From Alphaproteobacteria bacterium (lineage in GTDB: Bacteria > Pseudomonadota > Alphaproteobacteria > UBA2966 > CAIVPW01): a DNA stretch of 64,000 nucleotides. Below are positions 58,182 to 58,714 of this stretch, piece after piece. Numbering within the stretch: the stretch's first letter is position 1; every line of letters starts with the position of its first letter. The position numbers and the translations under genes are program-made. The stretch is taken from assembly GCA_947481575.1 (NCBI GenBank), contig CANKGV010000002.1, positions 1-64,000 on the forward strand, written 5' to 3'. Under the pieces are notes generated by a model that saw only the letters and a list, made by a program, of their open reading frames with translations, was not told where the DNA came from and made no database searches.

Positions 58182-58200
58182 GCCGATGCGATCCACACAG

Positions 58201-58215
58201 AATACGAAACGTATT
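58201..58215. promoter_or_regulatory. Palindrome AATACG-AAA-CGTATT between two divergent genes
   Basis: Perfect 6-bp arms with a 3-nt centre, 19 nt upstream of the exported-protein ATG and overlapping the -35 box of the opposite gene. The right arm belongs to CGTATTTAC (58210-58218), the same 9-mer found in the downstream palindromes, so one DNA-binding protein may recognise both. Confidence 0.5.
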
Positions 58216-58242
58216 TACTAAAACGCCCACATATTGTATAGT
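58214..58242 (+). promoter_or_regulatory. Promoter for the palindrome-rich small gene
   Basis: -35 TTTACT (58214-58219), exactly 17 nt, -10 TATAGT (58237-58242, five of six consensus bases). An expected start near 58249 leaves about 22 nt of leader, which contains AGGAGG (58258-58263). Confidence 0.65.
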
Positions 58243-58270
58243 TCGTGGCCCCGAACCAGGAGGCCGGCCG

Positions 58271-58714
58271 ATGCCCAGCAGTGCCAAAACCCAACCTAAA
58301 GGCCATGATTACCGTAGATTCCCCGTAGATACGGTGGCGCGGCCCGCGCCCGCGCGTTCATCACAGTCCGTATCGGCAGCCCGTCCTGGCGTAGATTCCG
58401 CGTATTTACGCCAGCCCCCGCGCTCCGCGGCGTCAGGTCCGTTTTGCGTAAATCCCGCGTATTTACGCAAAATCGCGCGCCGCGCCCCGGCGGCATCGCC
58501 GCGCGTAAATCCCGCGTACTTACGCGCGGGGCCGTGCCGTGGTGGGTGGTCGAAAGCCGCCTACTTCGCCTCGGGCGGGTTCGCTTCTTTGCCGAGCAGC
58601 GAAAGGTTGGCGGCCGGCCGCGCGGCCTCGGTGGAAGGCGGCAGTTCGCCCTTCGCCAACACCAGCACGGTGGCCGAAGTGCCGAATAGTCCGCCGCTGG
58701 CGCCCAAGCGATAG
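58271..58714 (+). CDS. Small unknown gene with repeated VNPAYLR motif
   Basis: 147-codon frame starting ATG with a perfect AGGAGG 7 nt upstream and a good promoter before it. The product is basic and low in complexity. VDSAYLR, VNPAYLR and VNPAYLR recur at exact 19-residue steps, with unrelated 12-residue spacers, because each copy is encoded by a 23-bp palindrome. The C-terminal third overlaps the 3' end of the convergent lipoprotein gene by 154 nt, so the true product may be shorter or the transcript may act as RNA. No known family, membrane helix or signal peptide. The strong start signals are the case for a gene; the overlap and composition are the case against. Confidence 0.4.
   Translation: MPSSAKTQPKGHDYRRFPVDTVARPAPARSSQSVSAARPGVDSAYLRQPPRSAASGPFCVNPAYLRKIARRAPAASPRVNPAYLRAGPCRGGWSKAAYFASGGFASLPSSERLAAGRAASVEGGSSPFANTSTVAEVPNSPPLAPKR
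58312..58525. repeat. Array of four 23-bp palindromes (GCGTAAAT-N7-ATTTACGC)
   Basis: Units at 58312-58334, 58389-58411, 58446-58468 and 58503-58525. The third is perfect: GCGTAAAT-CCCGCGT-ATTTACGC. The second differs by a change that keeps a G-U pair in RNA, the fourth by one mismatch, and the first is most diverged (CCGTAGAT-TCCCCGT-AGATACGG, five pairs left). Start-to-start spacing is 77, 57 and 57 nt; spacers are unrelated GC-rich sequence. Each could be a hairpin in the RNA or a binding site in the DNA. Confidence 0.85.

What the first reader, a model, noticed from the sequence alone, without database searches (positions are those of the whole stretch)
58182..58714. Palindrome array inside a small gene with near-consensus start signals
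A strong promoter (TTTACT-17-TATAGT) and perfect AGGAGG precede an ATG, and the frame carries four 23-bp palindromes, the last three at exactly 57-nt steps. 57 is 19 codons, so every copy encodes VNPAYLR or a variant while the 34-nt spacers are unrelated. The 9-mer CGTATTTAC also occurs at the promoter in a second palindrome (58201-58215), exactly 114 nt (2 x 57) before the matching position in unit 1. The conserved part is the palindrome rather than the peptide, pointing to selection on DNA or RNA: an operator array read by a regulator, an RNA hairpin tandem (unit 2 keeps a G-U pair), or a decoy leader. I know no described system like it.
Basis: seen in the sequence. Interest (0 to 1): 0.65.

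Follow-up and report, generated by a model that had tools for sequence, protein, structure and literature searches.

The report
Dispersed promoter-plus-palindrome module, not a gene
The four palindromes are one copy of a short non-coding cassette, a regulated-looking promoter followed by one to four DNA palindromes, which is scattered at eleven places in this freshwater bacterium and gained or lost between related species; how it spreads and what it does are not shown.

Summary
The four 23-bp palindromes (58312-58525) lie in an intergenic region between two minus-strand genes. The plus-strand ORF has no coding signal and overlaps the end of the gene at 58561.

The palindromes belong to a dispersed non-coding module: 21 units at 11 loci in this 2.45-Mb alphaproteobacterial genome, plus diverged copies in five relatives of its family. 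Among 385 genomes of the class none turned up outside that family.

At all 11 loci a sigma70-type promoter reads into the array, in the same orientation. At 7 it carries an exact dyad RAYAC-N5-GTRTY, at 3 a partial one.

Comparing orthologous loci: the rpsF, atpI and thrC copies occur only in this genome. The ahcY copy is shared with three species of another genus, with -35 and -10 almost fixed. lepA palindromes are shared by up to six genomes. Spacing (57 nt) and reading frame are not conserved across copies. The arms co-vary, but G-U pairs are not favoured over A-C, so RNA action is not established. No RAYT transposase was found.

Best reading: a lineage-specific, promoter-bearing dispersed repeat, a new variant of the Correia/QMITE kind. 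Regulator, mobiliser and function are unknown.

The parts
58201..58215 (.). Dyad AATAC-GAAAC-GTATT (operator-like, consensus RAYAC-N5-GTRTY), overlapping the -35 box by two bases
   Evidence: Exact consensus; the genome holds 20 exact matches (reversed-pattern control 3), 8 of them at 7 of the 11 module loci
58214..58219 (+). -35 box TTTACT
   Evidence: Best promoter-like site in the 250 nt upstream of the array
58237..58242 (+). -10 box TATAGT, 17-nt spacer; first palindrome starts 69 nt after its end
58312..58334 (+). Palindrome unit 1, CCG type: CCGTAGATTCCCCGTAGATACGG
   Evidence: Model R1, E 3.1e-5
58389..58411 (+). Palindrome unit 2, GCG type with CTG/CAG outer arms
   Evidence: Model R1, E 2.3e-8; arms
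58446..58468 (+). Palindrome unit 3, GCG type with TTTT/AAAA outer arms
   Evidence: Model R1, E 4.9e-9; arms
58503..58525 (+). Palindrome unit 4, GCG type with CCGC/GCGG outer arms; about 95% identical over 39 bp to the unit at the C19 locus
   Evidence: Model R1, E 1.1e-8; similarity
58271..58714 (+).
   Evidence: No coding composition, no family hit, overlaps the gene below
57366..58181 (-). Flanking gene (hypothetical); its start lies next to the module's promoter end
   Evidence: Coding composition 0.68/0.57/0.91; no family hit
58561..59442 (-). Flanking gene, weak cupredoxin-like; the module's promoter points at its 3' end (convergent)
   Evidence: Pfam PF13473 at E 4.4e-5, below its cut-off; coding composition

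Best explanation
This is one copy of a dispersed, non-coding intergenic module of this bacterial family: a sigma70-type promoter overlapped by a dyad operator, followed 20-150 nt downstream by one to four 23-bp palindromes of the form SCGTA-N6-SCGTA-NN-TACGS. Shown: anatomy, fixed polarity, dispersal, gain and loss between species, and conservation of the promoter at one shared locus. Inferred: copies spread by duplication or transposition by an unknown agent; the promoter is active and under a common repressor; it makes a short leader or non-coding transcript through the palindromes, which form hairpins or bind a protein close behind the start site. Most copies probably behave as a promoter-bearing repeat (Correia/QMITE-like); a few, as at ahcY and lepA, look retained by selection.
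For: 21 units at 11 loci in G000. At all 11 the better promoter-like site lies upstream of the array and points into it (mean score 8.26 upstream, 6.26 downstream, Wilcoxon p 0.001; 34 loci including relatives p 9e-6; dyad score p 7e-6). All three exact ACGTATTGAC sites in the genome are at module loci. Between the CxxCxxCC and atpI copies similarity runs 201 bp from dyad to first unit, and the window and rpsF copies align over 120 bp at 79%, so copies are related beyond the palindrome. Empty orthologous sites: rpsF in seven relatives, atpI in four, thrC in six. ahcY: module present in G000, G003, G004, G006 with invariant TTGACAC and TATACA, absent from G001 and G002. Restricted to two genera among 385 class genomes.
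Against: No transposase, terminal repeat or target duplication was identified; relatives are too diverged to define ends. Some palindromes in relatives have no promoter or dyad nearby, and one G000 locus (C4) has no dyad. Linkers are mostly diverged, so independent origin of some copies is possible. The promoter scan is a consensus match, not a measurement.
Confidence: 0.6

Rival explanations
1. A family of regulated small RNAs or RNA leaders: a common repressor controls about ten promoters whose transcripts carry tandem hairpins that bind an RNA-binding protein or pair with mRNAs.
For: Constant polarity of promoter and array; compensatory changes in the arms (8 pairs with both sides changed, 0/500 shuffles reach the covariation score); outer arms pair beyond the core in 13 of 23 units against 2.7 in permuted flanks.
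Against: G-T mispairs (23) are not commoner than A-C (27), as RNA pairing on this strand would predict. The inner half SCGTA-NN-TACGS is paired in 97.6% of cells, more than the long hairpin, so three segments co-vary, which one RNA helix does not explain. No Rfam match, no common terminator or fold.
Confidence: 0.2
2. DNA operator arrays: each palindrome is a site for a DNA-binding protein (three SCGTA half-sites, two in direct repeat 11 bp apart), acting as roadblock or looping partner behind the promoter and upstream of native promoters such as that of lepA.
For: Half-sites SCGTA nearly invariant and co-varying three ways; no G-U preference; at lepA the units lie just upstream of the conserved native promoter in six genomes.
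Against: Outer arms differ between units yet stay complementary within a unit, which a fixed DNA specificity does not need. Units keep one polarity relative to the promoter. No regulator was found: the S24-peptidase repressor gene next to the one good extra dyad (C3:121257) lacks such a dyad in relatives and is missing from G003 and G007, which carry modules.
Confidence: 0.15
3. A short gene with repeated VNPAYLR peptide and strong start signals.
For: AGGAGG and ATG at 58271; open frame of 147 codons.
Against: Codon-position GC is not coding-like; overlap with a minus-strand gene; no family hit; the frame is not kept at other loci, where unit spacing is 35-80 nt.
Confidence: 0.03
4. REP/REPIN elements moved by a RAYT (Y1) transposase.
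For: Small palindromes, intergenic, many copies.
Against: No Y1_Tnp (PF01797) gene in any of the eight family genomes, while the control found it in 5 of 14 known genomes; promoter and dyad are not REP features.
Confidence: 0.02

Closest known systems
Correia / NEMIS elements of Neisseria (PMC2229807)
   Same: Small dispersed intergenic repeats with putative promoters and stem-loop transcripts, near housekeeping genes
   Different: Here no terminal inverted repeats or TA target duplication were found; tandem 23-bp palindromes and a dyad over the -35 box instead; other lineage; about 11 copies
QMITE1/QMITE2 of Coxiella burnetii (PMC5896051)
   Same: Dispersed non-coding elements with sigma70 promoters that give rise to small RNAs
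   Different: QMITEs have direct repeats and about 50 copies each with high similarity; here linkers are diverged and mobility ends are unknown
Caulobacter CcrM-associated intergenic repeats (spelled CerM in PMC2229807)
   Same: Intergenic inverted repeats in alphaproteobacteria
   Different: Those carry the GANTC methylation site; only a few units here contain GATTC (2 of 4 in the window)
REP / REPIN elements (PMC3116915, PMC3733652)
   Same: 20-40 bp extragenic palindromes in several variants per genome
   Different: No RAYT transposase in the family; fixed promoter partner

Membership tests
Promoter-bearing dispersed repeat (Correia/QMITE-like) | Multiple intergenic copies related by sequence beyond a short motif | tested here: met
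   11 loci; similarity over 120-201 bp between some copies
Promoter-bearing dispersed repeat (Correia/QMITE-like) | Carries its own promoter | tested here: met
   Consensus promoters upstream at 11 of 11 loci; activity not measured
Promoter-bearing dispersed repeat (Correia/QMITE-like) | Occupied versus empty orthologous sites | tested here: met
   rpsF, atpI and thrC occupied only in G000; divergence prevents base-exact comparison
Promoter-bearing dispersed repeat (Correia/QMITE-like) | Terminal inverted repeats and target-site duplication | tested here: inconclusive
   None seen at the loci read; ends cannot be fixed from relatives this diverged
REP/REPIN with RAYT | RAYT (Y1 transposase) gene in the genome | tested here: not met
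   0 of 8 family genomes; genome is a 47-contig draft, 98.7% complete
CRISPR array | Near-identical repeats at regular spacing | tested here: not met
   Two 57-nt steps here, but 35-80 nt elsewhere, and repeats vary within a locus; cas genes were not searched
Known structured RNA (Rfam) | Match to a family model at gathering score | tested here: not met
   Only a tRNA at 11929-12000 in the window; nothing credible in 57900-58900
Caulobacter CcrM-associated repeat | GANTC site within the repeat | tested here: not met
   GATTC in units 58312 and 58389 only of the four here; most units elsewhere lack it

The most novel reading that the evidence does not exclude
A lineage-specific regulon in which one unidentified repressor controls some ten dispersed promoters, each starting a transcript through tandem palindromes; the palindromes act as trans-acting sinks or roadblocks that tie housekeeping loci (ahcY, lepA, atpI, rpsF, thrC) to one signal.
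Probability: 0.15. Interest if true: 0.7.

Novelty: new variant of a known kind. Interest (0 to 1): 0.42.

Why it matters
If right, it is a natural case of a promoter cassette with built-in palindromes spreading through a small genome and being kept at a few housekeeping loci, caught with occupied and empty sites in sister species. It would make the step from selfish repeat to regulatory element testable, and it warns that a perfect ribosome-binding site before an open frame need not mark a gene.

Tried and rejected
S24-peptidase repressor at C3:121335 as the regulator: a dyad lies nearby, but orthologs lack it and two module-bearing relatives lack the gene. Phage, plasmid or viral origin: no match. 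RAYT/REP: no Y1 gene. Rfam: no match. RNA folding of whole transcripts: local hairpins only, no shared fold or terminator. G-U versus A-C strand test: no preference. Reading the lepA array as the lepA 5' leader was dropped when a conserved native promoter was seen between array and ATG. Hybrid outer arms as products of recombination between two unit types: suggestive, not tested. The relatives' best matches to the 58561 gene (32-38% identity) are too distant to call orthologous, so presence or absence at the window's own site is not known.

Full report
What is there. The window holds four 23-bp palindromes at 58312, 58389, 58446 and 58503, preceded by a promoter-like pair TTTACT-17-TATAGT (58214-58242) with a dyad AATACGAAACGTATT (58201-58215) over its -35 box. 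Three palindromes match the GCG-type pattern where 0.14 are expected. They lie between two genes that both read on the minus strand. The plus-strand ORF of 147 codons lacks the codon-position composition of its neighbours, hits no family and runs into the gene that ends at 58561. I therefore do not regard it as a gene.

It is a dispersed module. A pattern search of the genome and a covariance model of the unit give 21 units at 11 loci. Read in the window's plus direction the unit is SCGTA-N6-SCGTA-NN-TACGS, usually GCGTAAATCCCGCGTATTTACGC. Arrays have one to four units. The exact 57-nt steps are not kept: other loci have 35, 45, 54, 59 and 80 nt.

The promoter travels with it. At each of the 11 loci the better promoter-like site is on the same side of the array and points into it: mean score 8.26 upstream against 6.26 downstream, Wilcoxon p 0.001; with 23 loci of relatives p 9e-6. 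The downstream score is not always low: at atpI it equals the upstream one because the gene's own promoter lies there. The dyad RAYAC-N5-GTRTY is exact at 7 loci, partial at 3, and absent at C4. The genome has 20 exact dyads against 3 for the reversed control, and several of the rest look like chance matches. All three exact ACGTATTGAC sites are at module loci. These loci were chosen by the palindromes, not by their promoters, but I designed the promoter test after seeing the first examples.

Relatives. Among 40 relatives, and later 385 genomes of the class, units were found only in this family, in two genera; the class-wide search used stricter filters and may miss weak copies. Two relatives correspond to lake metagenome assemblies. 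One exact unit lies in a genome labelled Candidatus Marinimicrobia, also named as a metagenome assembly; its meaning is open. A scan of viral contigs and searches of phage and plasmid records found nothing.

Occupied and empty sites. The rpsF, atpI and thrC intergenic regions carry the module only in this genome. Upstream of ahcY it is present in G000, G003, G004 and G006, with TTGACAC and TATACA invariant in all four while the palindromes and linkers differ; in G001 and G002 the upstream gene nearly abuts instead. Upstream of lepA clear units are found in G000, G004, G005 and G007 and degenerate ones in G003 and G006; in G001 pheT abuts lepA. At lepA and atpI the native promoter is conserved between array and start codon, so the module is an addition upstream of it. 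Where downstream genes lie in sense they are housekeeping genes; at other loci, as in the window, the module points at the 3' end of a convergent gene.

Structure. The arms co-vary: 8 of 12 pairs have changes on both sides and no shuffle reaches the covariation score. Outer bases pair beyond the core in 13 of 23 units against 2.7 in permuted flanks. Yet the inner half SCGTA-NN-TACGS pairs in 97.6% of cells, so three segments co-vary, and G-T mispairs are no commoner than A-C. This does not single out RNA. A protein site, a DNA hairpin, or template-switch mutation that perfects palindromes remain possible. Related copies inflate such counts.

Mechanism. Shown: anatomy, polarity, dispersal, occupied and empty sites, promoter conservation at ahcY. 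Inferred: the promoters are active, a common repressor binds the dyad, transcripts run through the palindromes, and copies spread by duplication or transposition. I give the whole reading 0.6. The agent of spread is unknown: no RAYT gene is present, and ends or target duplications could not be fixed.

Comparison. Correia/NEMIS elements and the Coxiella QMITEs are the closest in behaviour: dispersed, intergenic, promoter-bearing, some giving small RNAs. This module differs in its tandem 23-bp palindromes, its dyad and the absence of recognised terminal repeats. I call it a new variant of a known kind.

Noticed in passing
48517-48547 (-), 54837-54867 (-), 57238-57268 (-), variant 54404-54434 (+): A second dispersed palindromic repeat, GTGGATGGCCGGAACAAGTCCGGCCATGACG, three exact copies in the window (0 expected). 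Similar sequence lies beside the module copies at L071 and L064.
   Followed up: partly
L060:2758-2772 (G000:C3:121257): One good dyad GATACACTACGTATC without palindromes, next to an S24-peptidase repressor-like gene (Pfam PF00717). Not confirmed as the module's regulator.
   Followed up: partly
L064, L083-L088 (upstream of ahcY): A site like ACATAAAGATTTCTTTATGCTTG is conserved upstream of ahcY in all seven genomes read, between module and gene; it resembles a methionine-cycle operator from memory only.
   Followed up: no
L078, L079, L081 (upstream of lepA): In genus g4 the lepA region carries another conserved inverted repeat, GAGACCAAGCACTCGTGATTGTCTC-like, upstream of the palindromes.
   Followed up: no
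L070:4807-4829: At the C19 locus the palindrome falls inside the predicted start of a DUF5681 gene and is read in frame as PARKSRVLTRG.
   Followed up: no
L028:3380-3402: An exact unit in a metagenome assembly labelled Candidatus Marinimicrobia; could be transfer, mislabelled bin or coincidence.
   Followed up: no
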